A DNA stretch of 64,000 nt, from positions 13,634,275 to 13,698,274 of the forward strand of contig NC_134032.1 of NCBI RefSeq assembly GCF_964204645.1, in the 5' to 3' direction. This DNA is from Tubulanus polymorphus. Lineage: Eukaryota > Nemertea > Palaeonemertea > Tubulaniformes > Tubulanidae. Below the pieces are notes generated by a model that was not told the DNA's origin, made no database searches, and was given only the letters and a program-made list of their open reading frames with translations. Below, piece after piece: positions 1-64,000 of the stretch. A program made the translations under genes and the position numbers. Every line of letters starts with the position of its first letter. Position 1 is the first letter of the stretch.

Positions 1-165
1 AGGATTAGAGAACAAATAGCATCTTTCAACTGAAGAAAAACAACAAATTTATAAATGCACTTCAAAGAATGACTGGTGTGACTTCTTAAAAGAAAATCGA
101 TTTTCGGTTTGGATACAAACCACTTATATTTTTATCGTAATCAACAATGGACAGTAAGTGACGGG

Positions 166-233
<68 letters not shown>

Positions 234-1263
234 TGCTGCTACTGCTGTTGGCGCTGCTCAAGTGCGATCAAAATGATGTTCTTTATGGACTTGTTCATTA
301 CACATTGATCGACCTTTTACATGGTATTGAACTGAAAATAAAATAAAAGATTCTTTATTAATTCATTTTCAAATATAGAAACCAATAGGGAGAATTGCCA
401 ATTTTACACAATTCTACTTACATACTGCAGTAATTGGACGTCAAGTTTACCAGACAGTGTCAGGGGTGAAGATTTTGCAGTACTTGCAAATCATTTTTCA
501 TGGCGCTGATCTAAAGTAGAATTAAGAATTCGAAATTGATATACATTTTCAAACATGGAAACCAATAGTTAGGATTTCCAAATTTACACGTTTCTCCTCA
601 CATTCTGTAACACTCCCATGCTGAGGTCACCAGCCACTCATTGGAGGTGGATGGAGTCTACAATAGTTGCATATCAAGTTGATCAGGGTCTCACCAGTAA
701 CAGATTCTGCAGCACTCTTGAATCCAATTGTGGAATTTGTGAATGATTCCACACCAGGTGTTTCTAAATCAGTACAATATTGTATAGCAGATGAGTATAA
801 ACAGCGCCAGCCAAAAAACAGGCATAATTGATAATGGATGATATCAACTTTGAAAACTAGTTTTACTTACTCAGACTTAATGTCGAATGAATGAGTCTGT
901 TTGTGAAGAGAACATATTGCATCATTTATCTGAAGGAAAACAAGAAATAGAAAAAAATTATTTCTGCAGATTATTGATGATTTCTTTATTTTGGTCTGAA
1001 TACATACCACTAATATTTCTATCGTAATCAAATGAGTGTCAGGGCGGCGGCTTCTCAGGCCCGATCAAAATGATGTTCTTTATGGACTAACTTGTTCATT
1101 ACTTAGAGAATCAGCTTGTTACATGGTATTGAACTGAACATGAAATGAAAGATTCTTCATAGATTAATTTTCAAACAAAGAAACTAGTAGGGGTAATTTC
1201 CAATTCTAACTTTTTCTACTCACATTCTGGAGCACTTGTATGCTGATTTCACCAGATAAAAAC
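1..1263 (-). repeat. Diverged cassettes at the left edge
   Basis: This stretch holds one to two cassettes that diverge more than those further right. CTG-bearing D modules lie near 160-335 and near 1040-1135 (the second degenerate, with CGG triplets). An A-like module lies near 420-510 and a B-like module near 610-770. A C-like module near 870-930 is followed by an A-like stretch near 1210-1260. No gene is recognisable beyond the array modules. Confidence 0.7.
170..247 (+). repeat. CTG trinucleotide microsatellite
   Basis: There are sixteen uninterrupted CTG triplets at 170-217, then CTT, six CTG, CTA, CTG and TTG. It sits exactly where every D module carries a shorter CTG tract of usually 3-5 triplets, so it is an expanded version of a resident feature. 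The plus-strand poly-leucine reading frame across it is a by-product of the repeat. Confidence 0.95.
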
Positions 1264-2837: not shown

Positions 2838-3022
2838 GTAAAAGCCGTAGGCATTTTTCTTCATCTTCAAATACGGGATTGGCCCTGTTATTTATTTAAT
2901 TGGTAGATTTCATTTGATTTGTTTTGATTGAGTGTCCCTTACAAGCGCCAGATTGGGGTTTTCGTTGTTGGTTACTTAGTTTAAAACATTGAAATTTTCT
3001 TAATATCCGTAACTATACTAAG
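2838..3022. other. Non-array spacer repeated in all five 2.68-kb copies
   Basis: About 185 bp here do not match any module of the array. Equivalents are at 5520-5704, 8161-8345, 10864-11048 and 13538-13719. On the minus strand the spacer contains an ATG at 2864 followed by codons for KKNAYGFYMYE, which run into the following B module and stop at 2778. This peptide resembles the start of an HMG-box-like domain such as that of Maelstrom, but eleven residues are too few to name it. It interrupts the region between the B-module acceptor and the C-B spacer. Confidence 0.6.
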
Positions 3023-3189
3023 CAGAGATGCTAGGGCCAAAGTACCAAAATTTCGGAATTCAGAACGGGGGCCTGGGGATCCTCCCCCAGAAAAAATTTT
3101 GCGTTTTTGCATCGCCGGAGATGCAGTATCACGATCGGCATCTTTCATCTGAAAATATGACGGCAGGCATTCGTTGTGCTTCACACCCC

Positions 3190-3444
3190 TCACTGCTTAT
3201 GCCGCGCGCTATCCGGATGACGAAGAATATCTTTTTTCCCGCCACTACCGTATTTGACCTGGTCTTTACAAACGACGCAGTACGCCACGCCAGCTAAGTC
3301 TAACTTACGAATGTAGTTCGATAAGTAGTCCCCGTTACTGTCCTTACACTCTAGCCAGTGCCAGTTAAATTTATTTTTTATACCGCTGTCAATTGCCTTT
3401 ATATCGGCCGACTCCCGACTGACAATCTTTCCGTGCGTGCTCAT
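3190..3444 (-). CDS. Truncated hAT-associated zinc-finger ORF, copy 1
   Basis: This 84-codon ORF begins with ATG at 3444. An aromatic patch FNWHWLE (residues 26-32) precedes a C-x2-C-x16-H-x5-H zinc-binding pattern: Cys56, Cys59, His76, His82. The combination is characteristic of the N-terminal zinc finger of hAT-type and related transposase proteins of invertebrates, where it is followed by several hundred residues of catalytic and dimerisation domain. Here it stops right after the second histidine. The adjacent frame starting at 3193 (VRGVKHNECLPSYF and on) looks like its shifted continuation and reaches the left terminal repeat. It could be a short DNA-binding peptide or just a remnant. 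Residue 48 is Leu here and Ile in the other copies. Confidence 0.6.
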   Translation of the reverse strand: MSTHGKIVSRESADIKAIDSGIKNKFNWHWLECKDSNGDYLSNYIRKLDLAGVAYCVVCKDQVKYGSGGKKDILRHPDSARHKQ

Positions 3445-3529
3445 TTTGCAGACCGTCCCGCTTGACAGCCGCAGGCAAAAAGAAAGTTACAAAGCTGCGT
3501 GCCTCAGGACATAGCACGCGCGTGGTTAT

Positions 3530-3564
3530 AATTAAGATGATATTTATTAAATATCATCTTAATT
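3530..3564. repeat. 35-bp perfect palindrome in transposon copy 1
   Basis: The two 17-bp arms at 3530-3546 and 3548-3564 are exact reverse complements around a single T. Flanking cgtgg and ccacg extend the symmetry imperfectly. It lies upstream of the zinc-finger ORF on the minus strand. Confidence 0.93.
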
Positions 3565-5871
3565 AATACCACGTGCATCTTCACATTGTTGGCCGTCAGC
3601 GGGACGATGTACAACGGCGCGTTAAGATAATTGACTTTCAATTGGAAATGGCGTCACAACAGTGGCGCTCCGCCTACGCACGCGCACAGATACCACAACA
3701 AGCACACATATATACATTGTAGCAGAACGTCCTCGGAAACGGAGACCAAGATAAAATAACACAGAAGCTACGATGAGTGTAAGCAAACGAACGCTTTTAC
3801 GGTCCGTGCCATTACTGGTCGCCGCGAGGAATTCTCACCAAATTTCCGGAATTCTGGATATTTCCGGAAAACTAGCATCTCTGATTAATACAAAACTATA
3901 TAGGCATGAAGAACGTATCTAAAAGCTGATAGTAGCAGCTAAAAATGGGCATTATTAATAATGGACGATACCAAGTTTTGAAAATATGTTTTACTTACTA
4001 GAAATCAACTGCGATCAAGTGTCCAATTTAGTGTTTGTGGAGAGGATGGTGAGAGAACATATGGCTCATATTTCTCTCATCTGAAGAAAAAAAGAAAATT
4101 ATTGGAAATGTATTTCAAAAGATGATTATTATATTATATAAAATGAAATTGAATTTCGGTCTGAACACATACCACTTATGTTTCTATTGTAATCAATGAT
4201 GGACTGTAAGTGTCAGAGCTGCTGCAGTTCAGATCACTTTGATCAAAATGAAAATCCTTAAAGACCGTGCATTACATAGATGTTCCAACCTTTTACATGG
4301 TATTGAACTGAAAATAAAATAAAAGATTCTTCACAAATCCATTTTCAAACATAGAAACCAATAGGAACCTTTCCAATTTTGCAGAATTCTACTCACATTC
4401 TACAGCACTTGGACGTCAAGTTTATCTCACTGGGGATAGATTCTGCAGTACTCGCAAATCATTTTTCATGACACTGAACTAGATTAGAATAAATAATTCA
4501 TCAGGAATAATTCATTTTCACACATAGAAAACAACAGTGAGGATTTCCAAATTTACACATTTCTTATTACATTCTTTGGCACTTCGATGCCGAGTTTACC
4601 AGTATCTATCTTGCATATCAAACTGATCAGCGTCTCACCAGTGACAAATTCTGCAGCACTCTGAATCCAATTGTGGAATTTGTAAATGATTCTACACCAG
4701 GTGTTTCTAAAACAGTACAAAATTGTTTAGAAGTTTTAACCAACAGTGCCAGCCACAAAAAAAAAACCGGCATAATTAATAACGGATATCAAACTTTGAA
4801 CATTTCTTTTACTTACTCGGAATCAATGTCAAATGAATGGATCTGTTTGTGAAGAGAACGTATTGCATCATTCTATCTGAAGAAAAACAAAAGATAGATG
4901 AAAAATTCATTTCTACAGATAATAGATGATTTCTTAATTTCAGTCTGAATACAAACCACTAATATTTCTATCGTAATCAAACAATGTTCTGTAAGTTTGA
5001 AGGGCTGCTGCTGCTACTGCTGCTGCTGCTACTGTTGGTGCTGCTCAAGTCCGATCAAAATGATGTTCTTTATGGACTTGTTCATTACATAGAGGATTGA
5101 CCTTTTACACAGTATTGAACTGAAAATAGAATGAGATTTTCCATTACCGGTATTCATTTTCAAACATAGAAACCGATTAGGGAGGATTTCCAATATGACA
5201 TGATTCTATACTCACATTCTGCAGCACTTGGGTGTGAGTTCACCAGACAGTGTCTCACTTGGGGATATTCTACAGCACTCGGACGTCAAGTTCACGGGAC
5301 AGTGCACTTAACTAATTTCACGGTTTCGCACTTGGGATGTCAGGTTCGCCAGACAGTGCCTCAATGGAGCAGTTCTGCGGCATTTGGAATCCATGTCACA
5401 TTTTGTGGAACTTTATTATGATGACAATTTCATTTTTTGCTTTATCAGTTTTCAGAGCTTTCCGTAAATAATTCCACACCAGGCGTTTCTAAAATCAATA
5501 CAAACATACATTCATACATGTAAAAGCCGTAGGCATTTTTCTTCATCTTCAAATACGGGATTGGCCCTGTTATTTATTTAATTGGTAGATTTCATTTGAT
5601 TTGTTTTGATTGAGTGTCCCTTACAAGCGCCAGATTGGGGTTTACGTTGTTGGTTACTTAGTTTAAAACATTGAAATTTTCTTAATATCCGTAACTATAC
5701 TAAGCAGAGATGCTAGGGCCAAAGTACCAAAATTCCGGAATTTAGAACGGGGGCCTGGGGATCCTCCCCCAGAAAAAATTTTGTGTTTTTGCATCGCCGG
5801 AGATGCAGTATCACGATCGGCATCTTTCATCTGAAAATATGACGGCAGGCATTCGTTGTGCTTCACACCCC

Positions 5872-6126
5872 TCACTGCTTATGCCGCGCGCTATCCGGAT
5901 GACGAAGAATATCTTTTTTCCCGCCACTACCGTATTTGACCTGGTCTTTACAAACGACGCAGTACGCCACGCCAGCTAAGTCTATCTTACGAATGTAGTT
6001 CGATAAGTAGTCCCCGTTACTGTCCTTACACTCTAGCCAGTGCCAGTTAAATTTATTTTTTATACCGCTGTCAATTGCCTTTATATCGGCCGACTCCCGA
6101 CTGACAATCTTTCCGTGCGTGCTCAT
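5872..6126 (-). CDS. Truncated hAT-associated zinc-finger ORF, copy 2
   Basis: This is the 84-codon sister of the ORF at 3190-3444. It keeps the four zinc ligands Cys56, Cys59, His76 and His82, and has Ile at residue 48. It stops at the same place, with the shifted continuation starting at 5875. Confidence 0.58.
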   Translation of the reverse strand: MSTHGKIVSRESADIKAIDSGIKNKFNWHWLECKDSNGDYLSNYIRKIDLAGVAYCVVCKDQVKYGSGGKKDILRHPDSARHKQ

Positions 6127-6211
6127 TTTGCAGACCGTCCCGCTTGACAGCCGCAGGCAAAAAGAAAGTTACAAAGCTGCGTGCCTCAGGACATAGCACG
6201 CGCGTGGTTAT

Positions 6212-6246
6212 AATTAAGATGATATTTATTAAATATCATCTTAATT
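6212..6246. repeat. 35-bp perfect palindrome in transposon copy 2
   Basis: Same arms and same central T as in copy 1; no arm mutations are seen. Confidence 0.92.
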
Positions 6247-8512
6247 AATACCACGTGCATCTTCACATTGTTGGCCGTCAGCGGGACGATGTACAACGGC
6301 GCGTTAAGATAATTGACTTTTAATTGGAAATGGCGTCACAACAGTGGCGCTCCGCCTACGCACGCGCACAGATACCACAACAAGCACACATATATACATT
6401 GTAGCAGAACGTCCTCGGAAACGGAGACCAAGATAAAATAACACAGAAGCGACGATGAGTACAAGCAAACGAACGCTTTTACGGTCCGTGCCATTACTGG
6501 TCGCCGCGAGGAATTCTCACCAAATTTCCGGAATTCCAGATATTTCCGGAAAACTAGCATCTCTGATTAATACAAAACTATATAGGCATGAAGAACGTAT
6601 CTAAAAGCCGATAGTAGCAGCTAAAAACGGGCATTATTAATAATGGACGATACCAAACTTTGAAAATAAGTTTTACTTACTACAAATCAACTGCGATCAA
6701 GTGTCTAATTTAGTGTTTGTGGAGAGGATGGTAAGAGAACATACGGCTCATATTTCTTTCATCTTAAGAAAAATAGAAAATGATTGGAAATGTATTTCAA
6801 AAGATGATTATTATATTATATGAAATGAAATTGAATTTCGGTCTGAACACGTACCACTTATGTTTCTATTGTAATCAACGATGGACTGTAAGTGTCAAGG
6901 GCTGCTACAGTTCAGATCACTTTGATCAAAATGAAAATCCTTATAGACCCGTGCATTACATAGATGTTCCAACCTTTTACATGGTATTGAACTGAAAATA
7001 AAATAAAAGATTCTTCACAAATCCATTTTCAAACATAGAAACCAATAGGGAGCTTTTCCAATTTTGCAGAATTCTACTCACATTCTACAGCACTTGGACG
7101 TCAAGTTTACCGGACAGTGTCTCACTGGGGATAGATTCTGCAGTACTCGCAAATCATTTTTCATGACACTGAACTAGATTAGAATAAATAATTCATCAGG
7201 AATAATTCATTTTCACACATCGAAAACAACAGTGAGGATTCCCAAATTCACACATTTCTTATTACATTCTTTGGCACTTCGATGCCGAGTTTACCAGTAT
7301 CTATCTTGCATATCAAACTGATCAGCGTCTCACCAGTGACAGATTCTGCAGCACTCTGAATCCAATTGTGGAATTTGTAAATGATTCTACACCAGGTGTT
7401 TCTAAAACAGTACAAAATTGTTTAGAAGTTTTAACCAACAGTGCCAGCCACAAAAAAGCGGGCATAATTAATAACGGATATCAAACTTTGAACATTTCTT
7501 TTACTTACTCGGAATCAATGTCAAATGAATGGATCTGTTTGTGAAGAGAACATATTGCATCATTCTATCTGAAGAAAAACAAAAGATAGATGAAAAATTC
7601 ATTTCTACAGATAATAGATGATTTCTTAATTTCAGTCTGAATACAAACCACTAATATTTCTATCGTAATCAAACAATGTTCTGTAAGTTTGAAGGGCTGC
7701 TGCTGCTACTGCTGCTGCTGCTACTGTTGGTGCTGCTCAAGTCAGATCAAAATGATGTTCTTTATGGACTTGTTCATTACATAGAGGATTGACCTTTTAC
7801 ACAGTATTGAACTGAAAATAGAATGAGATTTTCCATTACCGGTATTCATTTTCAAACATAGAAACCGATTAGGGAGGATTTCCAATATGACATGATTCTA
7901 TACTCACATTCTACAGCACTCGGACGTCAAGTTCACGGGACAGTGCACTTGACTAATTTCACAGTTTCGCACTTGGGATGTCAGGTTTGCCAGACAGTGC
8001 CTCAATGGAGCAGTTCTGCGGCACTTGGAATCCATGTCACATTTTGTGGAACTTTATTATGATGACAATTTCATTTTTTGCTTTATCAGTTTTCAGAGCT
8101 TTCCGTAAATAATTCCACACCAGGCGTTTCTAAAATCAATACAAACATACATTTATACATGTAAAAGCCGTAGGCATTTTTCTTCATCTTCAAATACGGG
8201 ATTGGCCCTGTTATTTATTTAATTGGTAGATTTCATTTGATTTGTTTTGATTGAGTGTCCCTTACAAGCGCCAGATTGGGGTTTACGTTGTTGGTTACTT
8301 AGTTGAAAACATTGAAATTTTCTTAATATCCGTAACTATACTAAGCAGAGATGCTAGGGCCAAAGTACCAAAATTCCGGAATTTAGAACGGGGGCCTGGG
8401 GATCCTCCCCCAGAAAAAATTTTGCGTTTTTGCATCGCCGGAGATGCAGTATCACGATCGGCATCTTTCATCTGAAAATATGACGGCAGGCATTCGTTGT
8501 GCTTCACACCCC

Positions 8513-8767
8513 TCACTGCTTATGCCGCGCGCTATCCGGATGACGAAGAATATCTTTTTTCCCGCCACTACCGTATTTGACCTGGTCTTTACGAACGACG
8601 CAGTACGCCACGCCAGCTAAGTCTATCTTACGAATGTAGTTCGGTAAGTAGTCCCCGTTACTGTCCTTACACTCTAGCCAGTGCCAGTTAAATTTATTTT
8701 TTATACCGCTGTCAATTGCCTTTATATCGGCCGACTCCCGACTGACAATCTTTCCGTGCGTGCTCAT
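8513..8767 (-). CDS. Truncated zinc-finger ORF, copy 3, zinc ligand lost
   Basis: It is 84 codons long like its sisters, but the second metal-binding cysteine (residue 59) is arginine, a T-to-C change in the TGT codon near 8591. Residue 42 is proline instead of serine. Loss of one of four ligands should abolish zinc binding, so this copy is probably non-functional as a DNA-binding finger. Confidence 0.55.
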   Translation of the reverse strand: MSTHGKIVSRESADIKAIDSGIKNKFNWHWLECKDSNGDYLPNYIRKIDLAGVAYCVVRKDQVKYGSGGKKDILRHPDSARHKQ

Positions 8768-8852
8768 TTTGCAGACCGTCCCGCTTGACAGCGGCAGGCA
8801 AAAAGAAAGTTACAAAGCTGCGTGCCTCAGGACATAGCACGCGCGTGGTTAT

Positions 8853-8887
8853 AATTAAGATGATATTTATTAAATATCATCTTAATT
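8853..8887. repeat. 35-bp perfect palindrome in transposon copy 3
   Basis: Same arms and same central T as in copies 1 and 2. Confidence 0.92.
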
Positions 8888-10333
8888 AATACCACGTGCA
8901 TCTTCACATTGTTGGCCGTCAGCGGGACGATGTACAACGGCGCATTAAGATAATTGACTTTTAATTGGAAATGGCGTCACAACGTGGCGCTCCGCCTACG
9001 CACGCGCACAGATACCACAACAAGCACACATATATACATTGTATCAGAACGTCCTCGGAAACGGAGACCAAGATAAAATAACACAGAAGCGACGATGAGT
9101 ACAAGCAAACGAACGCTATTACGGTCCGTGCCATTACTGGTCGCCGCGAGGAATTCTCACCAAATTTCCGGAATTCCAGATATTTCCGGAAAACTAGCAT
9201 CTCTGATTAATACAAAACTATATAGGCATGAAGAACGTATCTAAAAGCCGATAGTAGCAGCTAAAAAGGGGCATTATTAATAATGAACGATACCAAACTT
9301 TGAAAATATGTTTTACTTACTACAAATCAACTGCGATCAAGTGTCTAATTTAGTGTTTGTGGAGAGGATGGTAAGAGAACATACGGCTCATATTTCTTTC
9401 ATCTTAAGAAAAATAGAAAATGATTGGAAATGTATTTCAAAAGATGATTATTATATTATATAGAATGAAATTGAATTTCGGTCTGAACACGTACCACTAA
9501 TGTTTCTATTGTAATCAACGATGGACTGTAAGTGTCAAGGGCTGCTGCAGTTCAGATCACTTTGATCAAAATGAAAATCCTTATAGACCCGTGCATTACA
9601 TAGATGTTCCAACCTTTTACATGGTATTGAACTGAAAATAAAATAAAAGATTCTTCACAAATCCATTTTCAAACATAGAAACCAATAGAGAGCTTTTCCA
9701 ATTTTGCAGAATTCTACTCACATTCTACAGCACTTGGACGTCAAGTTTACCGGACAGTGTCTCACTGGGGATAGATTCTGCACTACTCGCAAATCATTTT
9801 TCATGACACTGAACTAGATTAAAATAAATAATTCATCAGGAATAATTCATTTTCACACATAGAAAACAACAGTGAGGATTTCCAAATTTACACATTTCTT
9901 ATTACATTCTTTGGCACTTCGATGCCGAGTTTACCAGTATCTATCTTGCACATCAAACTGATCAGCGTCTCACCAGTGACAGATTCTGCAGCACTCTGAA
10001 TCCAATTGTGGAATTTGTAAATGATTCCACACCAGGTGTTTCTAAAACAGTACAAAATTGTTTAGAAGTTTTAACAAACAGTGCCAGCCACAAAAAACGG
10101 GCATAATTGATAACGTATATCAAACTTTGAACATTTATTTTACTTACTCGGAATCAATGTCAAATGAATGGATCTGTTTGTGAATTGCATATTGCATCAT
10201 TCTATCTGAAGAAAAACAAAAGATAGATGAAAAATTCATTTCTACAGATAATAGATGATTTCTTAATTTCAGTCTGAATACAAACCAGTAATATTTCTAT
10301 CGTAATCAAACAATGTTCTGTAAGTTTGAAGGG

Positions 10334-10337
10334 CTGC

Positions 10338-10371
<34 letters not shown>

Positions 10372-10380
10372 GCTACTGTT
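10334..10380 (+). repeat. Expanded CTG tract in D module
   Basis: Eight CTG triplets, CTA, four CTG, CTA, CTG and TTG. The equivalent D modules of 2.68-kb copies 1-3 have three CTG before the first CTA, so this tract grew after the copies separated. Confidence 0.9.
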
Positions 10381-11215
10381 GGTGCTGCTCAAGTCCGATC
10401 AAAATGATGTTCTTTATGGACTTGTTCATTACATAGAGGATCAGCCTTATACATGGTATTGAACTGAAAAAAGAATGAGATTTTCCATTACCGGTATTCA
10501 TTTTCAAACATAGAAACCGATAGGGAGGATTTCCAATATGACATGATTCTATACTCACATTCTGCAGCACTTGGGTGTGAGTTCACCAGACAGTGTCTCA
10601 CTGGGGGTAGATTCTACAGCACTTGGACGTCAAGTTCACGGGACAGTGCACTTGACTAATTTCACGGTTTTGCACTTGGGATGTCAGGTTCGCCAGACAG
10701 TGCCTCAATGGAGCAGTTCTGCGGCACTTGGAATCCATGTCACATTTTGTGGAACTTTATTATGATGACAATTTCATTTTTTGCTGTATCGGTTTTCAGA
10801 GCTTTCCGTAAATAATTCCACACCAGGCGTTTCTAAAATCAATACAAACATACATTCATACATGTAAAAGCCGTAGGCATTTTTCTTCATCTTCAAATAG
10901 GGGATTGGCCCTGTTATTTATTTAATTGGTAGATTTCATTTGATTTGTTTTGATTGAGTGTCCCTTACAAGCGCCAGATTGGGGTTTACGTTGTTGGATA
11001 CTTAGTTTAAAACATTGAAATTTTCTTAATATCCGTAACTATACTAAGCAGAGATGCTAGGGCCAAAGTACCAAAATTTCGGAATTCAGAACGGGGGCCT
11101 GGGGATCCTCCCCCAGAAAAAATTTTGCGTTTTTGCATCGCCGGAGATGCAGTATCACGATCGGCATCTTTCATCTGAAAATATGACGGCAGGCATTCGT
11201 TGTGCTTCACACCCC

Positions 11216-11470
11216 TCACTGCTTATGCCGCGCGCTATCCGGATGACGAAGAATATCTTTTTTCCCGCCACTACCGTATTTGACCTGGTCTTTACAAACG
11301 ACGCAGTACGCCACGCCAGCTAAGTCTATCTTACGAATGTAGTTCGATAAGTAGTCCCCGTTACTGTCCTTACACTCTAGCCAGTGCCAGTTAAATTTAT
11401 TTTTTATACCGCTGTCAATTGCCTTTATATCGGCCGACTCCCGACTGACAATCTTTCCGTGCGTGCTCAT
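11216..11470 (-). CDS. Truncated hAT-associated zinc-finger ORF, copy 4
   Basis: It is an 84-codon ORF with the same sequence as copy 2 and all four zinc ligands present. It is terminated at the same codon, and the shifted continuation starts at 11219. Confidence 0.58.
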   Translation of the reverse strand: MSTHGKIVSRESADIKAIDSGIKNKFNWHWLECKDSNGDYLSNYIRKIDLAGVAYCVVCKDQVKYGSGGKKDILRHPDSARHKQ

Positions 11471-11555
11471 TTTGCAGACCGTCCCGCTTGACAGCCGCAG
11501 GCAAAAAGAAAGTTACAAAGCTGCGTGCCTCAGGACATAGCACGCGCGTGGTAAT

Positions 11556-11590
11556 AATTAAGATGATATTTAATAAATATCATCTTAATT
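11556..11590. repeat. 35-bp palindrome in transposon copy 4, centre changed
   Basis: The arms are unchanged, but the central base is A instead of T, and the left flank reads gtggtaat instead of gtggttat. The centre change amounts to inversion of the loop base. Confidence 0.9.
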
Positions 11591-11963
11591 AATACCACGT
11601 GCATCTTCACATTGTTGGCCGTCAGCGGGACGATGTACAACGGCGCGTTAAGATAATTGACTTTTAATTGGAAATGGCGTCACAACAGTGGCGCTCCGCC
11701 TACGCACGCGCACAGATACCACAACAAGCACACATATATACATTGTAGCAGAACGTCCTCGGAAACGGAGACCAAGATAAAATAACACAGAAGTGACGAT
11801 GAGTACAAGCAAACGAACGCTTTTACGGTCCGTGCCATTACTGGTCGCCGCGAGGAATTCTCACCAAATTCCAGATATTTCCGGAAAACTAGCATCTCTG
11901 ATTAATACAAAACTATATAGGCATGAAGAACGTATCTAAAAGCCGATAGTAGCAGCTAAAAAC

Positions 11964-14884: not shown

Positions 14885-15413
14885 GTATTGGACGGTGATT
14901 TCACCAGACAGTGTCTCACTGGGGGTAGATTCTGCAGCACTTGGATGTCAAGTTCACCAGACAGTGTCTCAATGGGGGTAGACTCTGCAGTACTTGGATG
15001 TCGAGTTCACCGGACAGTGTTTCACTGGGGGTAGTTTCTGCAGCACTTTGATGTCAAGTTCACCAGACAGTGTCTCAATGGGGGTAGACTCTGCAGTACT
15101 TGGATGTCGAGTTTACCGGACAGTGTTTTACTGGGGGTAGATTCTGCAGCACTTTGATGTCAAGTTCACCAGACAGTGTCTCAATGGGGGTAGACTCTGC
15201 AGTACTTGGATGTCGAGTTTACCGGAAAGTGTTTCACTGGGGGTAGATTCTGCAGCACTTTGATGTCAAGTTCACCAGACAGTGTCTCACTGGGGTAGAC
15301 TCAGCAGTACTTGGATGTCAAGTTCACTGGACAGTGTCTCAATGGGGCTAGATTCTGCAGTACTTGGATGTCAAGTTTACCGGACACTGTTTCACTGGGG
15401 GTGGACTCTGCAG
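14885..15413. repeat. 53-bp minisatellite array with 106-bp dimer pattern
   Basis: Ten units end in ctctgcag or attctgcag, with unit starts at 14938, 14991, 15044, 15097, 15150, 15203, 15256, 15308, 15361 and an end at 15413. All steps are 53 bp except one of 52. Units alternate between a tcaagttcaccagacagtgtctcaat form and a tcgagttcaccggacagtgtttcact form, so the true period over most of the array is 106 bp. The same 53-bp unit is the building block of module A elsewhere. Confidence 0.93.
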
Positions 15414-18180
15414 TACTTGTAATCCATTTTTCATGGTCCTCTATAAATTAGAATAAAGAATTCATCGTGAATAATACATTTCGGACATAGAAAGCAATAG
15501 TGAGGATTTCCAAAATTACAGTATTTCTTCTCACATTCTGTAACACTTTGATGCTGAGTTCACCAGTCTCCAACTGCAGCACTCTGAATCCAATTGTGGA
15601 ATCTGTGAATGATTCCACACCAGGCATTTCTGAATCAGTCCAAAATTGTATAGAAGGTGGTTGGATATTGCACCATTTATCTGAAGGAAAACAAGAAATA
15701 GAAAAATCCGTTTCTACAGATAATTGATGATTTCTTAATTTCGTTCTGAATACATACCACTAATATTTCTAACGTAATCGATCGATGGACTGTAAGGGTC
15801 AGGGGCTGCTGCTGCTCAAGTTCATTCAAAATGATGTTCATTATGGACTTGTTCATTACTGATACATAGAGATCAACCTACATGATGTTGAACTGAAGAT
15901 AAAATAAAACATTTCTCATTATTTCATTTTCAAACATAGAAACCAATAGGGAATATTTCCAATTTCCCACAATTCTACTCACATTCGGCAGGACCTGGAC
16001 GTCAAGTTCACCAGACAGTGTCTCACTGGGACAGATTATGCAGTACTTGCAAATCTATCTCACATGGGAATGAACTGAAAATAAAATCAAAGATTCATTA
16101 CGAATATATTTTCACTTTTAGAAAACAAAATTAGGAGGATTTATAAATTCCAATTTACATAGTTCTTCCCACATTCGGTAACACTTGGATGCTGAGTTCA
16201 CCAGTCTGTAACAGATTCTGGAGTACTCTGAATCCTTTTGTGGAATTTGTGATTGATTCATCTCCAAATAGATGGTAAGAGATATGCCGGGTTCACCAGT
16301 CTCTCATTGGAGGTGGATGGAGTCTACAATAGTTGCATATCAAGATGATCAGCATCGCGAACACCTCTGCAGTACTCTGAATCCTTTTGTGGAGTTTGTG
16401 AATAATCAATCTTCAAATAGATGGAGAGAGAAGATATTTCACCTGTTAACCGAAAGAAGGCCCAAAGAACATACGAATTAGTCAATAAGGGCAGCCAAAC
16501 AACAGGCATTACTGATTACTGGTGATGGATGAAATCAAACTTTTAAAACATGTAATAACTTACTCAGAATATTATGTCGAATGAATGGATCTGAAGAGAT
16601 GATGAGAGAACAAAGTGCAGCTTTCATCTGAAGGAAAACGAAAAGAGTTGCAAATCAACAATCCTCTTTTGAGGTGCATTTTTCAAATACCCGTAATGGA
16701 TGAAACCAAACTGAAAATGAAATTGAATTTCGTCTGCATTCGTACCATTTATATGTTTCGATTGCAAATAGCTATGGACTGTCAGTGTGTCAAAGTCTGC
16801 TGCCGTTCAAACCAAATCAATCAAGATAAAAATCTCTGTGGACTTGTGAGAATCAACCTCTTACTTGGTACTGGACTGAGAATTGAACACTTGACATGTT
16901 CACTAGACATTGTTTCACCAGTGGCAGAATGATTCCACACCAGGCGTTTCTAAATCAGTACCAAATTATATAGAGGGCGAATGAATGTTCTGTTTATCAA
17001 AAGATGTTGAGAGAAGGTATTGCAGCATTTGTCTGAAAGAAAATATAAATGAAAAACTCATTTTTAATGATGAATGATGATTTTTTAATCTCGGTCTGAA
17101 AATGCATACCACTAATATTTCTATCCTAATCAACCGATGGATGGAAAGTGACAAGGGCTGCTACTGCTGCTCAATCCAGATCAAAATGATGTTATGGTTT
17201 TGTACTGAAATGAAAAATGTGATTCTCCATTAATTCATTTTCATACATAGAAACCAACACGAAGGATTTCCGATTTTACATGATTCTACCGGTACTCACA
17301 TTCTGCAGCACTTGGATGTTAAGTTCAACTGACAGTGTCTCGACTATGGACAGATTATGCAGGACTAGAAATCAATTTTTCAAGGCACTGATCTATCAAG
17401 ATAGAATAAAAATTTTTTATTAATACATTTTCACACATAGAAACCAATAGGTTAGATTTCCAATTTTACACAGTTCTACTCACATTCTACAGCATTTGGA
17501 CATAAGTTTACCACACAATGTTTCACTAGGGGTAGATTCTGCACAACTTGAAATCCATTTCACATGGAAATGAACTGAAAATAAAATGAAATATTCATTT
17601 TGAATATTTTCAAACTTAGGAAACAAAAGGAAAAATTTCCAATTTCAAATCTTAAAAATTTCTTCTTACATTCCGTAGCACTTGGATGCAGAGTTCACCA
17701 GGCTCTCACTTAGGATAGTTTCTGCATCTTGGATGTCAAATTGATCAAACAACATTTCACCAGTGGCAGATTCTGCAGCACTCGATTCTTTTTGTGGAAT
17801 TTGTGAGTGATTCCACACCATTCGTTTCTAAAACAGTACAAAAACTGCATTGAAGGCGAGTACTAGCCATGGCATAAAAACATCTGGCTTAATTGATAAT
17901 GGATATGATAAATAATTGAAGATGCACTTCAAAAGATGATATATAATTTTTTCAAAATGAAATTGAATCCCGGTCCACATACATACCATTGATATTTCTA
18001 TCGTAATCAACAATAGACTTTAAGTACCAAGGGCTGCTGCTGTTCAGGTCACAACGATCAAAATGAATATCTCCATAGACTCGTTCATTACATGGTAAAT
18101 CAACCTCTGATGTGGTACTGAATGGAAATGAAATTGCAGATTCTCCATGAACATATTTTCAACAAACCAATAAGGAAGAT
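15414..18180 (-). repeat. Strongly diverged cassettes
   Basis: Array landmarks persist but are decayed. D modules lie near 15808, 17158 and 18033. B-type phrases (aatccttttgtggaatttgtg and similar) lie near 15575, 16225, 16375 and 17785. A-type stretches lie near 15985, 17300, 17490 and 17680. A duplicated phrase (ccagtctctcattggaggtggatggagtctacaatag, also near 640-670) links 16290-16340 to the left edge of the window. No independent gene is recognised. Confidence 0.65.
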
Positions 18181-19078: not shown

Positions 19079-19310
19079 GTGGTTGTCGAGGGTGTGGGTG
19101 GAAGTCAGTAGCTGCAGTCGAGGGTGTGGGTGGAAGTCAGTAGCTGCAATCGAGGTTTTGGGTGGAAGTCAGGAGATGCAATCGAGGGTGTGGGTGGAAG
19201 TCAAGAGGTCTAGTCGAGGGTGTAAGTGGAAGTCGGGAGCTGTGCGTGGCAGTCGAGGGCTCGGATGGTTGTCGGAAGGTTTAGGTTGCAGTCAAGGGTT
19301 CGGACGGGTT
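19079..19310 (+). repeat. 32-bp G-rich minisatellite, first copy
   Basis: Repeats of gtcgagggtgtgggtggaag plus cagtagctgca have a 32-bp period (gtcgag at 19085 and 19117) and decay rightward. The strand is strongly G-biased, with many GGG and GTGGG runs. Plus-strand frames rich in Val, Trp, Ser and Gly across it are repeat by-products. Confidence 0.88.
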
Positions 19311-19735: not shown

Positions 19736-19751
19736 GACTAATTCCACTATT

Positions 19752-24260: not shown

Positions 24261-24272
24261 AATTCCACGATT

Positions 24273-36003: not shown

Positions 36004-36043
<40 letters not shown>

Positions 36044-45998: not shown

Positions 45999-47396
45999 AT
46001 TGATCAAAATATAAATCTCTGTTGACTTAAGAGAATCAGCATCTTTCATGGAACTGAAAATCTGAAAATAAAAGAAAAGATTCTCGATAAATACATTTTC
46101 AAATTTAGAAAAAAATTGGGATTTTCCAATAATTACACTTCTACTCACATACTGCAGCACTAAAATACCAAGTTCACCACACATTGTCTCAGTAGGGGTC
46201 GATTCTGTAGGAGATTCTGTATCCATCTTACAAACATGGTACTGAACATAGAATAAGAGAGTCTTCACGAATTCAATTTCTAACATGGAAACTTATGGGG
46301 TGGATTTCAAATTCTTTGCATTTCTACTCACATTTTGTAGCACTTGGATGCAATTCAGCGAGTCAGCGAGTTGCAAGTAGATCCACGTCTCACCAGTGAC
46401 AGATTCTGCAGCACTCTTGAATCCAATTGTGGAATTTGTGAATGATTCTACACCAGGGGTTTCTGAATCAGTACAAAATTGCATAAAAGGTGAATATTTG
46501 CAAAAAAGGGAAGCCAAAAATGGGAATAAATGGTAATGGCTGATATCAAAATATGCTTTACTTTATCGGCATCAACGCTGAAGGAATGTTCTGTTTGTGA
46601 AGAGATGTTGAGAGAAGATATTTCAGCATCTAAAAACATGTAATAGATGGAAAACTCATTTCTAAAGATAATTGATGAATTCTTTAAAAGAAAATTGAAT
46701 TTCGGTCAGCATACATACCACATTTCGATTGTAATCAATGATGAACTGTAAATGTCAGGGGCTTCTGCTGCTGCTGCTCAGACTTGATCAAAATAATGTT
46801 CTTTAAGGACTTGTTCATTACTTAGAGGATCAACCTTTTACATCAAGTTGAACTGAAAATAAAATAAATCATTTTTCATTAATTCATTTTCAAACATAGA
46901 AACCAATAGGAAGATATTCAAATTTCACTCTTTTCTACTCACATTCTGCAGCACTTGGATGTTAAGTTTACCAGAAAGTGTTTCACAAAGGGTAAATTCT
47001 GCAGCACTTGAAATCCATCTCTTATCGGAATGAACTGAAAATATAATGATAGATTCATCACAAATATATTTTCACACCTAGAAAACAAATGTGGTCCAAG
47101 ATTACACATTTCTTCTCACATTGCGAAGCACTTCAATGCCGAGTTCATCAGTCTCTCACTGAGAGTTGATTCCACAACACTTGCATATCAAGTTGATCAG
47201 ACAGCGTCTCACCAGTGACAGATTCTGCAGCATCCCGAATCCAAATGTGGAATTGTGAATGATTCCACACCAGGCATTTCTAAATCAGTACAAAATTATA
47301 TAGAAGGTGAGTATTAGCTAAAAGTGGCGGCCAAAAGCGGGCATAATTAATGATGGATATCAAACTTATATGATTTACTTGGAATCAATGTCACAT
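45999..47396 (-). repeat. Cassettes between T and the second P block
   Basis: A modules lie near 46150-46240, 46325-46370, 46935-47030 and 47120-47200, B near 46385-46460 and 47210-47285, C near 46570-46640, and D near 46763. The left part (46280-46740) closely resembles 42180-42640. Confidence 0.8.
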
Positions 47397-50300
47397 AAAT
47401 GATCTGTTTGTGAATAGATGATGATATCGCACCACATCTGAAAGAAACAAATAAATGAAAAATACACTTCAACACATGATTAATGATTTCTTTTAAAACA
47501 AAATTGATTTCGGTCTGAATACAAACCACATTTCTATCGTAATCAACAATAGACAGTAAGAGTCGGGGGCTGCTGCTGCTGCTCAGGCCAGGTCAAAATG
47601 ACGTTCTTTATGGACTTGTTCATTACGAAGAGAGGATCAACCTTTTACATGATGTTGAACTGAAAATAAAATGAATCATTTTTAATTAATTTTCAAGCAT
47701 AGAAACCAATAGGAAGATATTCCAGTTTTACACTTTTCTACTCACATTCTACAGCACTTGGATATCAAGTTTACCAGAAAGTGTTTCACTAGGGGTAAAT
47801 TCTGTAGCACTTGGAATCCATCTCTTATCGGAATGAACTGTAAATATAATGAAAGATTCATTTTTCACACCTTGTAAACTAAAGGGTGGATTCTGAATTT
47901 CCATTTAAAAATTTCTTCTCACATTCTGTAGTACTTAGATGCTGAGTTCACCAGACAAAGTCTCCCTGACGGTTGTTTCTACAATACTTTGATATGAAAG
48001 TTGCTAAGACAGCTTCTCACCAGTGACAGATTCTGCAGCACTCTGAATCCAATTGTGGAATTTGTAAATGATTCTACACCAGGCATTTCTAAATAAGTAC
48101 AAAATTATATAGAAGATGAGTATTAAATGTGGTGGCCAAAAGCGGGCATAATTGATAATGGGTATCAAATTCATATATGATTTACTTGCAATCAATGTCG
48201 CATGAATGATCTGTTTGTGAATAGATGATGATATTGCAACTCATCTGAAAGAAACAAATAGATGGAAAATACACACTTCAATCAGATGATTAATAATTTC
48301 TTTAAAATGGAATTGAATTTCGGTCTGAACACAAACCAGTTATATTTCTATCACAATCAACAATGGACTGTAAGTGTCAAGGGCTGCTGCTGTTGAGGTC
48401 CCATTGATCAAAATAAAAATTTCTGTTGACTTGAGAGAATAAACCTCTTTCATGGTACTGTAAAAGAAAAGATTCTCAATAAATACATTTTCAAATTTAG
48501 AAACTGATAGGTACGGGTTTTCAATAATTACACTTTTACTCACATTCTGCAGCACTAAAATACCAAGTTCACCACATATTGTCTCAGTAGGGGTCGATTC
48601 TGTAGGAGATTCTGTATCCATCTTACATGGTACTGAACATAGAATAAGAGAGTTTTCACGAATTCAATTTCAAACATAGAAACCAATGGGGTGGATTTCA
48701 AATTCTTTGCATTTCTACTCACATTCTGCAGCACTTGGATACAATGCATACCGGACAGAGTCTCACTTGGGGGTTGATTCCGCAGCACTTGGAATCCATT
48801 TCACACGGCATTGACAACTGAAAATAAAATGACAGATTCATTTTGAATATATTTTCAAACTTAGAAAACAAAAAGAATTTTTAATTTCCAATTTTACACA
48901 TTTCTCCTCGCATTCTGTGGCACTTCCATGCTGAGTTCCTCAGACAGTCTCACTGAGGGTCGAGTCTACAATACTTGCATATTGTTGATCAGTCAGCAAG
49001 TTGCAAGTTGATCAGCTTCTCACCAGTGACAGATTGTGCAGCACTCTGAATCCAATTGTGGAATTTGTGAACAATTCTACACCAGACATTTCTAAATCAG
49101 AACAAAATTGTATAAAAGGTGAATATTTGCAAAAAAGGAAGCCAAAAATGGGAATAATTGGTAATGGCTGATATCAAGCTGATATCAAACTTTGAAAATA
49201 TACTTTACTTTATCGGTATCAATGTTGAAGGAATGTTCTGTTTGTGAAGAGATGTTGAGAGAAGATATTTCAGCACCTAAAAACATAAAATAGATGAAAA
49301 ACTCATTTCTAAAGATGATATGACTTCCTTAAAAGAAAATTGAATTTTGGTCTGAATATACATACCACTTATATTTTGATTGTTATCAACGATGATTAGT
49401 TTCGGGGGGCTGCTGCTGCTAGACTAGATCAAAATGATGTTCTTTATGGACTTGTTCATTACATAGAGGATCGACCTTTAACATGACGTTGAACTGGAAA
49501 TAGAATAAAACATTCTCCATTTATTCATATTCAAACATAGAAACCAATAGGGAGGATTCCAATGTCACACTATTCTACTAACATTCTACAGCACTTGAAC
49601 GTCAAGTTTACCAGAAAGTGTTTCACTAAGGGTAAATTCTGCAGCACTTGGAATCCAACTCTCATGGGAACAAACTGAAAACATAATGAAAGATTCATCA
49701 CAAATATATTTTCACTCCTAGAAAACAAAATGGGGTCCAAGATTACACATTTCTTCTCACATACTGTAGCACACCGATGCCGAGTTCACCAGTCTCTAAC
49801 TGATGGTAGATTCTACAACTCTCGGATATCAAGTTGATCAGACAGCGTCTTACCAGCAACAGATTCTGCAGCACTTTGAATCCAATTGTGGAATTTGTGA
49901 ACGATTCTACACCAGTCGTTTCTAAATAAGTACAGAATTATATAGGAGATGAGTATTATCCTAAAGTGGCAGCCAAACGAAGCATAATTGATAATGGATA
50001 TCAAACTCATATATGATTTACTTGCAATCAATGTGGCATGAATGATCTGTTTGTGAATAGATGATGATATTGCACCTCATCTGAAAGAAACAAATAGATG
50101 AAAAATACACACTTCAAAAGATGATTAATAATTTCTTAAAGATGAAATTGAATTTCGGTCTGAATACAAACCAGTTATATTTCTATCATAATCAACGATT
50201 GACTGTTAAGCATCAAGGGCTGCTGCTGTTGAGGTCCCATTGATCAAAATAAAAATTTCTGTTGACTTGAGAGAATCAACCTCTTTCATGGTACTGAACT

Positions 50301-60272: not shown

Positions 60273-62803
60273 AAAATAATGTTCATTATGGAGTTGTTCA
60301 TTACTTAGAGGATCAACCTTTTACATCAAGTTGAACTGAAAATAAAATAAATCATATTTCATTAATTCATTTTCAAACATAGAAACCAATAGGAAGATAT
60401 TCAAATTTCACTCTTTTCTACTCACATTCTGCAGCACTTGGATGTTAAGTTTACCAGAAAGTGTTTCACTAGGGGTAAATTCTGCAGCACTTGAAATCCA
60501 TCTCTTATCGGAATGAACTGAAAATATAATGAAAGATTCATCACAAATATATTTTCACACCTAGAAAACAAATGTGGTCCAAGATTACACATTTCTTCTC
60601 ACATTCCGAAGCACTTCAATGCTGAGTTCATCAGTCTCTCACTGAGAGTTAATTCCACAACACTTGCATATCAAGTTGATCAGACAGCGTCTCACCAGTG
60701 ACAGATTCTGCAGCATCCCGAATCCAAATGTGGAATTGTGAATGATTCCACACCAGGCATTTCTAAATCAGTACTAAATTATATAGAAGGTGAGTATTAG
60801 CTAAAAGTGGCGGCCAAAAGCGGGCATAATTAATGATGGATATCAAACTTATATGATTTACTTGGAATCAATGTCACATGAATGATCTGTTTGTGAATAG
60901 ATGATGATATTGCACCTCATCTGAAAGAAACAAATAAATGAAAATTACACTTCAACACATGATTAATGATTTCTTTAAAAGAAAATTGATTTCGGTCTGA
61001 ATACAAACCACATTTCTATCGTAATCAACAATGGACAGTAAGAGTCGGGGGCTGCTGCTGCTGCTGCTCAGGCCAGGTCAAAATGACGTTCTTTATGGAC
61101 TTGTTCATTACGAAGAGAGGATCAACCTTTTACATGATGTTGAACTGAAAATAAAACGAATCATTTTTCATTAATTTTCAAGCATAGAAACCAATAGGAA
61201 GATATTCCAGTTTCACACTTTTCTACTCACATTCTACAGCACTTGGATATCAAGTTTACCAGAAAGTGTTTCCCTAGGGGAAAATTCTGTAGCACTTGGA
61301 ATCCATCTCTTATCGGAATGAACTGTAAATATAATGAGATTCATTTTTCACACCTTGTAAACTAAAGGGTGGATTCTGAATTTCCATTTAAAAATTTCTT
61401 CTCACATTCTGTAGTACTTGGATGCTGAGTTCACCAGACAAAGTCTCCCTGACGGTTGTTTCTACAATACTTTGATATGAAAGTTGCTAAGACAGCTTCT
61501 CACCAGTGACAGATTCTGCAGCACTCTGAATCCAATTGTGGAATTTGTAAATGATTCCACACCAGGCATTTCTAAATAAGTACAAAATTATATAGAAGAT
61601 GAGTATTAAATGTGGTGGCCAAAAGCGGGCATAATTGATAATGGGTATCAAATTCATATATGATTTACTTGGAATCAATATCACATGAATGATTTGTTTG
61701 CGAATAGATGATGATATTGCACCTCATCTGAAAGAAACAAATAGATGAAAAATACACACTTCAATCAGATGATTAATAATTTCTTTAAAATGGAATTGAA
61801 TTTCGGTCTGAACACAAACCAGTTATATTTCTATCACAATCAACGATGCACTGTAAGTGTCGAGGGCTGCTGCTGTTGAGGTCCCATTGATCAAAATAAA
61901 AATTTCTGTTGACTTGAGAGAATCAACCTCTTCCATGGTACTGAACATCTGAAAGTAAAAGAAAAGATTCTCAATAAATACATTTTCAAATTTAGAAACT
62001 GATAGGTACGGGTTTTCAATAATTACACTTCTACTCACATACTGCAGCACTAAAATACCAAGTTCACCACATATTGTCTCAGTAGGGGTCGATTCTGTAG
62101 GTGATTCTGTATCCATCTTACTAACATGGTACTGAACATAGAATAAGAGAGTCTTTACGAATTTATTTTCAAACAAAGAAACCAATAGGATGGATTTCGA
62201 ATTTATTGCAATTCTACTCACATTCTGCAGTACATGGATGCAATGCATACCAGAAATAGTCTTGGGGGTTGATTCCGCAGCACTTGGAATCCATTTCACA
62301 CGGCATTGACAACTGAAAATAAAATCAAAGATTCATTTTGCATTTATTCTCAAACTTAGAAAACAAAAGGGAGAATTTTCAAATTACACGTTTCTCCTCA
62401 CATTCTGTGGCATTTTGTCACATGAATAATCTGTTTGTGAATAGATGATGATATCGCACCTCATCTGAAAGAAACAAATAAATGAAAAATACACACTTCA
62501 ATCAGATGATTAATAATTTCTGTTAAAACAAAATTGATTTCGGTCTGAATACAAACCACATTTCTATGGTAATCAACAATGGACAGTAAGAGTCGGGGGC
62601 TGCTGCTGCTGCTCAGGCCAGGTCAAAATGACGTTCTTTATGGACTTGTTCATTACGAAGAGAGGATCAACCTTTTACATGATGTTGAACTGAAAATAAA
62701 ACGAATCATTTTTCATTAATTTTCAAGCATAGAAACCAATAGGAAGATATTCCAGTTTCACACTTTTCTACTCACATTCTACAGCACTTGGATATCAAGT
62801 TTA
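60273..62803 (-). repeat. Block S, second copy
   Basis: This is the counterpart of 52841-55370, starting at the chimeric D module and ending at ggatatcaagttta. D modules lie at about 61050, 61866 and 62600; the CTG tract at 61050 has one triplet more than its partner. Confidence 0.86.
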
Positions 62804-64000
62804 ATAAATACATTTTAAATTCAGAAACTGACGAGAAGGATTTTCCAATATTACACTTCTACTCACATTCTGCAGTACTAAAATACCAAGTTCACCAAAT
62901 ATTGTCTCAGCAGGGGTCGATTCTGTAGGAGATTCTGTACTAATCTTACATGGTACTGAAAATGGAATAAGAGTCACTTAGAATTTCTTGCAATTCAACT
63001 CACATTCTGCAACACTTGGATGTAATGCATACCAGACAGTCTCACTTGGGTAGATTCTGCAGCACTTGGAATCTATTTCAAATGGCAATGAACTGAAAAT
63101 ATAATGAAAGATTCATCACAAATATATTTTCACACCTATAAAACAAAAGTGGGTCCAAGATTACACATTTTTTCTCACATACTGTAACACTCCGATGCTG
63201 AGTTCACCAATCTCTAACTGATGGTAGATTCCAAACACTTGCATATCAACGTTGATCAGACAGCGTCTCACCAGTAACAGATTCTGCAGCACCCTGAATC
63301 CAATTGTGGAATTTGTGAACCATTCTACACCAGACATTTCTAAATCAGTACAAAATTATATAGAAGGTGAGTATTAGCTAAAAGTGGCGGCCAAAAGCGG
63401 GCATAATTAATGATGGATATCAAACTTATATGATTTACTTGGAATCAATGTCACATAAATGATCTGTTTGTGAATAGATGATGATATTGCACCTCATCTG
63501 AAAGAACACAAATAAATGAAAAATACACTTCAACACATGATTAATGATTTCTTTAAAAGAAAATTGATTTCGGTCTGAATACAAACCACATTTCTATCGT
63601 AATCAACAATGGACAGTAAGAGTCGGGGGCTGCTGCTGCTGCTGCTCAGGCCAGGAAGATATTCCAGTTTCACATTTTTCTACTCACATTCTACAGCACT
63701 TGGATATCAAGTTTACCAGAAAGTGTTTCCCTAGGGGTAAATTCTGTAGCACTTGGAATTCATCTCTCATAGGAATGAACTGTAAATATAATGAAAGACT
63801 CATTTTTCACACCTTGTTAACTAAATGGTGGATTCTGAATTTCCATTTAAAAATTCCTTCTCACATTCTGTAGTGCTTAGATGCTGAGTTCACCAGTCAA
63901 AGTCTCCCCGACGATTGATTCTACAATACTTTGATATGAAAGTTGCTAAGACAGCTTCTCACCAGTGACAGATTCTGCAGCACTCTGAATCCAATTGTGG
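62804..64000 (-). repeat. Chimeric cassettes at the right edge
   Basis: 62804-63350 follows 56081-56620. From about 63360 it follows the type seen at 47300 and 60780. At 63655 a D module is cut short (ccagg joined to aagatattcc), removing its acceptor end and most of the D-A spacer. The window ends inside a B module. Confidence 0.8.

What the first reader, a model, noticed from the sequence alone, without database searches (positions are those of the whole stretch)
1..64000. A 64-kb nested array: 53 bp inside 0.8-kb cassettes inside 2.7-10.8 kb repeats
Four levels of tandem organisation are visible by direct reading, and they differ by region: 2.68-kb repeats on the left, 4.4-kb in the middle, overlapping blocks offset by 7.4-20.9 kb on the right. 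This resembles higher-order satellites, but the basic unit has a composite, exon-like structure. The array leaves the window on both sides, so its true size is unknown.
Basis: seen in the sequence. Interest (0 to 1): 0.75.

Follow-up and report, generated by a model that had tools for sequence, protein, structure and literature searches.

The report
Giant noncoding gene of repeated exons
The 64-kb repeat array is most likely the inside of one very large gene that makes a spliced RNA but no protein, in which a block of four small exons has been copied about 75 times; its shorter relatives in the same unnamed animal genome mostly lie near the ends of the assembled pieces.

Summary
The nested array is real: 53-bp units, ~0.83-kb cassettes, 2.68-kb, 4.4-kb and 7-21-kb repeats. 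It runs on ~8.5 kb right and ~6-10 kb left of the window and, as a cassette array, was found at one place in a 268-Mb genome. The cassette is not a plain satellite: on the minus strand it carries four exon-like segments with splice signals (74 E1, 75 E4, 80 E3-type hits). Across 52 of 73 cassettes the 16 splice-dinucleotide columns changed 17 times against 42.8 expected, while exon and intron bodies drift alike, without codon rhythm. The array sits between a GC-rich promoter-like element and a 3'-end signature. The same pair, same order and strand, bounds units of about 3.0-5.5 kb at 12 other loci; here they are 84 kb apart. My reading: one ~84-kb spliced noncoding RNA gene with nearly 300 exons, a hyper-expanded member of a multi-copy family, grown by unequal exchange. 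No transcript data were available: transcription, splicing and function are inferred. Closest known: Firre-type exon-repeat lncRNAs and SNHG14-type tandem noncoding exons; no snoRNA or strong hairpin was found.

The parts
1..64000 (-). Part of the ~78-kb cassette array that falls in the window: 60 E1, 62 E4, 68 E3-type (42 E3 + 26 E3b) exon-model hits, order E1-(53-mers)-E2-E3-E4. Its two gene-like ends lie outside the window: the family 5' element at C8:13707209-13707805 (window +72935 to +73531) and the 3'-end signature at C8:13623328-13623364 (window -10946 to -10910)
   Evidence: nhmmer with exon models; self-BLAST; ends
47280..48088 (-). One representative cassette (809 bp, E1 acceptor to next E1 acceptor)
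47923..48088 (-). Exon-like E1 of that cassette (166 bp; after ...TTTAG, before GTGAGAAG)
   Evidence: read; consensus
47746..47837 (-). Exon-like E2 (92 bp; after ...TTTACAG, before GTGAGTAG); holds 53-mer cores
   Evidence: read; consensus
47527..47659 (-). Exon-like E3 (133 bp; CAG-repeat bearing; donor GTTTGT)
   Evidence: read; consensus
47379..47437 (-). Exon-like E4 (59 bp; after TTTCAG, before GTAAATC)
   Evidence: read; consensus
14900..15419 (-). 53-bp tandem array (9.8 copies)
   Evidence: TRF
19749..20237 (-). 53-bp tandem array (9.2 copies)
   Evidence: TRF
24269..24651 (-). 53-bp tandem array (7.3 copies)
   Evidence: TRF
19085..19242 (.). 32-bp minisatellite (4.9 copies)
   Evidence: TRF
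23493..23753 (.). 32-bp minisatellite, second array (7.9 copies), ~4.4 kb from the first
   Evidence: TRF
2880..3900 (.). Stretch holding a dispersed ~0.83-kb repeat element (query 141-974), copy 1 of 4 co-amplified with the 2.68-kb unit; lies between an E4/E3 hit and an E1 hit, i.e. in an intron of the model
5562..6582 (.). Same, copy 2 (99% to copy 1)
8203..9222 (.). Same, copy 3 (98%)
10906..11917 (.). Same, copy 4 (98%)

Best explanation
The window is the interior of one minus-strand gene of about 84 kb (C8:~13,707,500 to 13,623,330) that makes a spliced, polyadenylated long noncoding RNA. An ancestral short member of the family (5' element, exons with 53-nt units, terminal exon, shared 3' end) had a four-exon cassette (E1-E4, ~455 nt of exon in ~833 bp) amplified to about 75 copies by unequal exchange, with a dispersed element caught in one sub-array and minisatellites in another. 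The mature RNA would be of the order of 34 kb (75 x 455), with nearly 300 small exons and well over 100 copies of a CAAGTGCTGCAGAAT core. Shown from sequence: the array, its single strand, kept splice dinucleotides, lack of coding signal, and the flanking family elements. Inferred: transcription, splicing, polyadenylation. Most likely mode of action (speculative): a repeat-bearing scaffold RNA; the 53-mer is the main body module seen in several family branches, while most exon sequence drifts so long as the cassettes stay spliceable.
For: One place, one strand: all 78 protein-level matches to a cassette lie in C8:13634594-13705730, minus (150 of 217 candidates scored); among the DNA matches listed (output cut, 319 in all) those outside this locus are 53-mer-sized pieces. 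Splice signals: four consensus acceptors with Y-rich tracts and four donors; AG kept in 96-98% at the 4 acceptors against 73% for 45 other AG; GT kept in 92, 98, 83 and 77% against 71% for 46 other GT; on a tree of 52 cassettes 17 changes in the 16 splice columns against 42.8 base-matched expectation, P about 0.0004. Strand bias: TTTTCAG 115 sense/9 antisense (shuffle 18.8), AATGTGAG 124/0 (3.8) (copies are not independent). Noncoding: consensus E1 and E3 closed in all frames, exon lengths spread over all residues mod 3, gap runs multiple of 3 in 27 of 171 (exon) and 38 of 202 (intron); no Pfam hit in 4 ORFs; exon 2.47 against intron 2.62 changes per column. Family frame: the 5' element occurs at 20 loci; a 3' signature occurs 18 times, 0 in the reversed control; 13 of the 20 element loci have it downstream on the same strand: 11 at 4.8-5.5 kb (8 of 8 on C3, 3 of 3 on C6), one at 3.0 kb (C8:11.88 Mb), this one at 84.4 kb with no other element or signature found in between. 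A C3 member reads as 5' element, 53-mer array, ten exon-like segments of which nine are closed in all frames, then AATAAA and the signature.
Against: No RNA evidence at all. Seven of 20 element loci (5 on C8, C1, C10) lack the exact 3' signature, and 5 of the 18 signatures have no element match. The 3' pattern was written from three of its 18 matches and the others are near-identical C3/C6 copies, so only its rarity elsewhere is independent. Splice boundaries were picked by eye from a few copies (mild ascertainment); donors alone are weaker (11 changes against 21.5, P 0.04) and not significant in the rank test (0.086). GTRAGT is above shuffle on the antisense strand too (137 sense, 76 antisense, shuffle 47.5). 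A replicate on C3-C6 bodies was too small (acceptors 2 of 2 and 4 of 4, donors 4 of 5 and 5 of 7; other AG 28 of 38 and 44 of 61, other GT 47 of 57 and 71 of 84). E1, E2 and E4 have more open frames than mononucleotide shuffles (mean 0.35, 0.60, 1.38 against 0.12, 0.34, 0.87), and stretches of 147-169 aa through E2b/E3b and their introns are open in six ORFs. Other family bodies that were fetched do not show the cassette.
Confidence: 0.57

Rival explanations
1. A higher-order satellite or dead gene: the cassette array is a non-functional tandem repeat that grew from a fragment of a once-spliced gene; splice motifs are fossils.
For: Nested repeats of 2.68, 4.4 and 7-21 kb at 79-98% identity are what unequal exchange makes; exon and intron bodies diverge alike, and in the 66 closest pairs exons even diverge more (ratio 1.54); related 53-bp arrays lie in outer parts of C3, C6 and C8.
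Against: Splice dinucleotides took about 2.5 times fewer changes than base-matched columns; 38 of 52 cassettes hold all eight sites within a few bases; family 5' and 3' ends flank the array in order.
Confidence: 0.23
2. A protein-coding gene with repeated exons, or its decayed remnant: cassettes once encoded a short repeat such as the peptide read through E2/E2b.
For: Open stretches of 147-169 aa in six ORFs; E4 (59 nt) has an open frame in 52 of 52 cassettes, E2 in 25, E1 in 17, each above shuffled expectation.
Against: E3 open in 4 of 52, at shuffle level; consensus E1 and E3 closed; lengths, indels and variation show no triplet signal; no Pfam match; longest ORF in a spliced cassette averages 68 aa (maximum 127) against 57 shuffled, 95th percentile 86; the 53-bp period breaks frame.
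Confidence: 0.09
3. A host transcript whose product is small RNA: tandem introns or exons carrying snoRNAs or miRNAs (SNHG14-like), or a unistrand piRNA precursor.
For: Tandem noncoding exons with short introns on one strand; outer chromosomal location of most relatives; pyrimidine-rich start motif of the element (by eye).
Against: No Rfam hit at gathering score in the window; in five family stretches ten hits with E up to 5, best 0.027, all below gathering score; sliding consensus folds of 21 cassettes give one window under z -2 (z -2.25, sense); introns are no more conserved than exons. A piRNA role would leave no such trace and is untested.
Confidence: 0.1

Closest known systems
Firre lncRNA with exonic RRD local repeats (PMC4820808; passages read)
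   Same: Spliced noncoding RNA in which one repeat makes up about half the exons (7 of 13 human, 11 of 23 mouse exons in the passages read); repeats largely confined to one locus
   Different: Here nearly 300 inferred exons in strict cassette order, nested 2.7-21-kb duplications, and some 20 loci sharing the 5' element; no sequence relation was tested; RNA not shown
SNHG14 / SNORD115-SNORD116 host gene (PMC11608373, PMC5748676; abstract starts in the search listing)
   Same: Dozens of tandem units in one long noncoding transcript
   Different: No snoRNA or other conserved structure found in the cassettes; four exons per unit
Higher-order satellites, alpha-satellite type (recalled, no call)
   Same: Nested tandem repeat levels that differ by region
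   Different: Unit is exon-like with kept splice sites; array is bounded by gene-like ends; relatives are units of a few kb
Giant repeated-exon protein genes, titin type (recalled, no call)
   Same: Many duplicated exons in one gene
   Different: No steady reading frame here

Membership tests
Exon-repeat long noncoding RNA (Firre-like) | No conserved reading frame | tested here: met
   (with the open-frame excess in E1, E2, E4 noted)
Exon-repeat long noncoding RNA (Firre-like) | Repeat lies in exons with functional splice sites | tested here: inconclusive
   Splice dinucleotides conserved but no RNA seen
Exon-repeat long noncoding RNA (Firre-like) | Transcribed, nuclear-retained RNA | not testable with these tools
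   needs RNA data
snoRNA host gene (SNHG14-like) | Intronic box C/D or H/ACA RNAs | tested here: not met
   No Rfam hit in the window, no strong conserved fold in cassettes; box motifs only looked for by eye
Higher-order satellite | Nested tandem repeats with region-specific higher-order units | tested here: met
Higher-order satellite | No gene organisation | tested here: not met
   5' element and 3' signature flank it; splice columns slow
Repeated-exon protein gene | Open frames, triplet indels, codon-position bias | tested here: not met
   open frames in excess for E1, E2, E4 but not E3
piRNA cluster | piRNA reads, Piwi dependence | not testable with these tools
   needs small-RNA data

The most novel reading that the evidence does not exclude
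A family of some 20 noncoding genes in an animal in which one member has become an ~84-kb gene of nearly 300 exons where selection holds the splice sites of the cassettes but not the exon or intron sequence: an RNA whose function needs cassette-by-cassette splicing and bulk repetition of a short core (a multivalent scaffold), not a particular sequence.
Probability: 0.3. Interest if true: 0.75.

Novelty: new variant of a known kind. Interest (0 to 1): 0.58.

Why it matters
If transcribed as read, this would be an exceptionally exon-rich noncoding gene, and a natural experiment: about 75 diverged copies of the same four-exon module in one gene let one measure what evolution keeps in a noncoding RNA. 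The result here, splice sites kept and sequence not, is a direct, testable claim about long noncoding RNAs. It also shows how a 'satellite' can hide inside a gene and be lost to repeat masking.

Tried and rejected
Coding gene: judged unlikely on frames, indels, codon position and Pfam, though E1, E2 and E4 have more open frames than shuffles. snoRNA/miRNA array: no Rfam match, no strong conserved fold. tRNA-type repeats: none (bacterial code setting). Short ORF inside the 5' element: I first thought it coding; gaps of 7, 8 and 6 bases in some copies and the lack of its start in the diverged C8:545k copy speak against. Structured RNA in the 5' element: single-sequence z -3.46; consensus z -2.78 sense and -0.18 antisense on 15 distinct rows of 16, found in 15 of 17 loci given (L028 and L029 gave none; L017, L019, L020, L021, which also hold copies, were not given). 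Few compensatory changes, so only suggestive. Organism: no COX1 or STING hit (the STING search rang nowhere, so it shows nothing); a TRPM exon matched a PDB channel that I recall as Nematostella's only in part, so I dropped my first guess of that species; a genome-size paper search found nothing. Independent splice test on C3 against C6 bodies: too few sites. Paper searches with the terms shown: the listed papers (15, 10, 0 and 10 shown) do not appear from title and abstract start to describe this array or family; I read none of them, and that is no proof that none exists.
Full report
OBSERVATION. The window is G000:C8:13634275-13698274 of a 267.8-Mb, 77-contig genome. TRF finds three 53-bp arrays and two 32-bp minisatellites, among 28 rows. 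The 30 longest self-matching blocks have identities of 79-98%. Self-BLAST of 114 kb (window plus flanks) shows dense same-strand repeats from about window -6000 to +72500, with only traces on the reverse strand (mean coverage at most 0.2 in any 1-kb bin of that range).

CASSETTE. Reading the minus strand suggested exons: CAG before and GTGAGT/GTAAGT after short segments. Exon models found 517 non-overlapping hits: 74 E1, 75 E4, 48 E3, 32 E3b and 288 of the 53-mer-bearing types E2/E2b, in the order E1, 53-mers, E2 (sometimes E2b), E3, E4. The 73 E1-to-E1 spacings have a median of 830 bp. Of these intervals, 52 of 650-1100 bp were aligned (21 outside that range were left out): E1 163, intron 96, E2 92, intron 90, E3 141, intron 89, E4 59, intron 103 columns.

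IS IT CODING? Probably not. Consensus E1 and E3 are closed in all frames; E1 is open in 17 of 52 copies, E2 in 25, E3 in 4, and E4 (59 nt) in 52. Against this reading, E1, E2 and E4 have more open frames than mononucleotide shuffles (0.35, 0.60, 1.38 against 0.12, 0.34, 0.87), and the longest ORF per spliced cassette averages 68 aa against 57 shuffled (95th percentile 86). For it: exon lengths spread over all three residues; 27 of 171 exon gap runs and 38 of 202 intron gap runs are multiples of three; variation has no steady codon rhythm; Pfam finds nothing in the four ORFs scanned.

ARE THE SPLICE SITES KEPT? Yes. The four acceptor AGs are kept in 96-98% of ungapped copies (other AGs 73%, n=45); donors in 92, 98, 83 and 77% (other GTs 71%, n=46). 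With shifts of a few bases allowed, 38 of 52 cassettes hold all eight sites; in a rank test the eight together reach P 0.001, acceptors 0.0006, donors 0.086. On a FastTree of the 52, the 16 splice columns changed 17 times against 42.8 expected from base-matched columns (P about 0.0004; acceptors 6 against 21.3, P 0.0016; donors 11 against 21.5, P 0.04). Exon and intron columns change alike (2.47 and 2.62). By pairs, exon distance is 0.212 and intron 0.229 on average; the ratio is 1.54 in the 66 closest pairs and 0.83 in the 98 most distant. Among the slowest 15-column windows are the 53-mer core CAAGTGCTGCAGAAT, other stretches of E1, splice junctions and some intron pieces; the core with at most one mismatch occurs 152 times sense and 0 antisense in the 83-kb stretch. 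Caveats: I chose the boundaries by eye from a few copies; copies exchange sequence, so the tree is approximate; a replicate on other family bodies was too small.

FRAME OF THE GENE. Just right of the array, on the same strand, lies a GC-rich element (C8:13707209-13707805). It is found at 20 loci: 8 on C3, 3 on C6, 7 on C8, 1 on C1, 1 split on C10; eight further matches of the 29 are short or diverged pieces. Sixteen of the 20 lie within 1.7 Mb of a contig end; ours does not (with the contig lengths). Alignment of 21 rows shows a TATA-like motif, a pyrimidine-rich start, a GGTAAG donor-like site and a strongly conserved block (labels by eye). 53-bp arrays follow it in the five examples near contig ends that were fetched whole: L008 (two elements), L009, L010, L011, L012. 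In the C3 member read in full (L013), ten exon-like segments between Y-rich AG and GTATGT follow, nine of them closed in all frames and one of 42 nt open, then AATAAA. The same 3' end is seen left of our array and at C8:11.88 Mb. A pattern for it, written from those three, has 18 matches in the genome and none in the reversed control: 9 on C3, 7 on C6, 2 on C8. Thirteen of the 20 element loci have it downstream on the same strand, counted from the element's start: 8 of 8 on C3 and 3 of 3 on C6 at 4.8-5.5 kb, C8:11.88 Mb at 3.0 kb, and ours at 84.4 kb. Seven element loci (five on C8, C1, C10) have none, and five signatures (one on C3, four on C6) have no element match. Neither element nor signature was found inside the array.

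SO WHAT IS IT? The simplest account is one ~84-kb unit of a noncoding gene family, in which one member's exon cassette multiplied. The other bodies examined (stretches of C3, C6, C8:15.58, C8:11.88, C1, C10) match our array mainly through 53-mers and the 5' element, not the cassette. The C3-type exons have their own relatives on C6 and C2, with shorter matches elsewhere. A dispersed element (36 other near-full copies among 40 scored of 972 candidates, so a lower bound) entered between E4/E3 and E1 on the left and was co-amplified: its four copies here are 98-99% alike against 89-95% for the others. So the 2.68-kb level is younger than that insertion.

HOW IT MIGHT WORK. Shown: order, strand, splice-column constraint, weak or no coding signal. 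Inferred: transcription from the 5' element, splicing of nearly 300 exons (229 E1, E3-type and E4 hits plus the 54 E2 with an acceptor taken) into an RNA of the order of 34 kb, and polyadenylation. Speculative: the repeated core acts as a multivalent binding site, as local repeats do in Firre (PMC4820808, passages). An alternative within the same reading is that the payload is the ~270-nt block of the 5' element (consensus fold z -2.78 sense, -0.18 antisense) and the array is a tolerated, spliced tail.

KNOWN AND NEW. Works like: exon-repeat lncRNAs and tandem noncoding-exon hosts. Member of: not established for any named family; snoRNA-host membership fails on the missing snoRNAs. What seems new is the scale, the nested duplication, and the contrast between kept splice sites and drifting bodies. 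The paper searches listed nothing that by title or abstract start describes it.

Noticed in passing
C8:545500-546500 (L030) and C11:859500-864500 (L029): Diverged (about 72%) relatives of the 5' element; on C11 they form tandem units spaced about 1.5-1.9 kb, with a 53-mer relative and exon-like segments (read by eye), so the element/53-mer pairing looks old.
   Followed up: partly
C8:9662800-9664000 (L031): The promoter-like part of the element alone (78%) stands in front of other sequence, as if one promoter type serves several genes.
   Followed up: no
C3:430001-480000 (L013-L017): The C3 member lies in a segmental duplication with a ~44.4-kb period, 98% identical over the 5.6 kb compared; further copies at similar spacing.
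   Followed up: partly
L006:3000-7000 (about C8:13.711-13.715 Mb): GC-rich repeat of 'gggcccgagccaaatttggcccgggcc' type with direct and inverted copies just right of the gene.
   Followed up: no
L004:5200-7900 and L003:7600-8700: Several minisatellites containing a CCTCGACT motif towards the 3' end of the gene; the 32-bp minisatellite in the window contains GTCGAGG, the reverse complement of CCTCGAC.
   Followed up: no
L032:3800-4100 and nearby: A small secreted cysteine-rich peptide frame and repeated receptor-like fragments next to the C8:11.88-Mb family member (read by eye, no search).
   Followed up: no
window 2880-3900, 5562-6582, 8203-9222, 10906-11917: Dispersed ~0.83-kb element, many copies genome-wide at 89-95% identity, caught in the 2.68-kb repeat.
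   Followed up: partly
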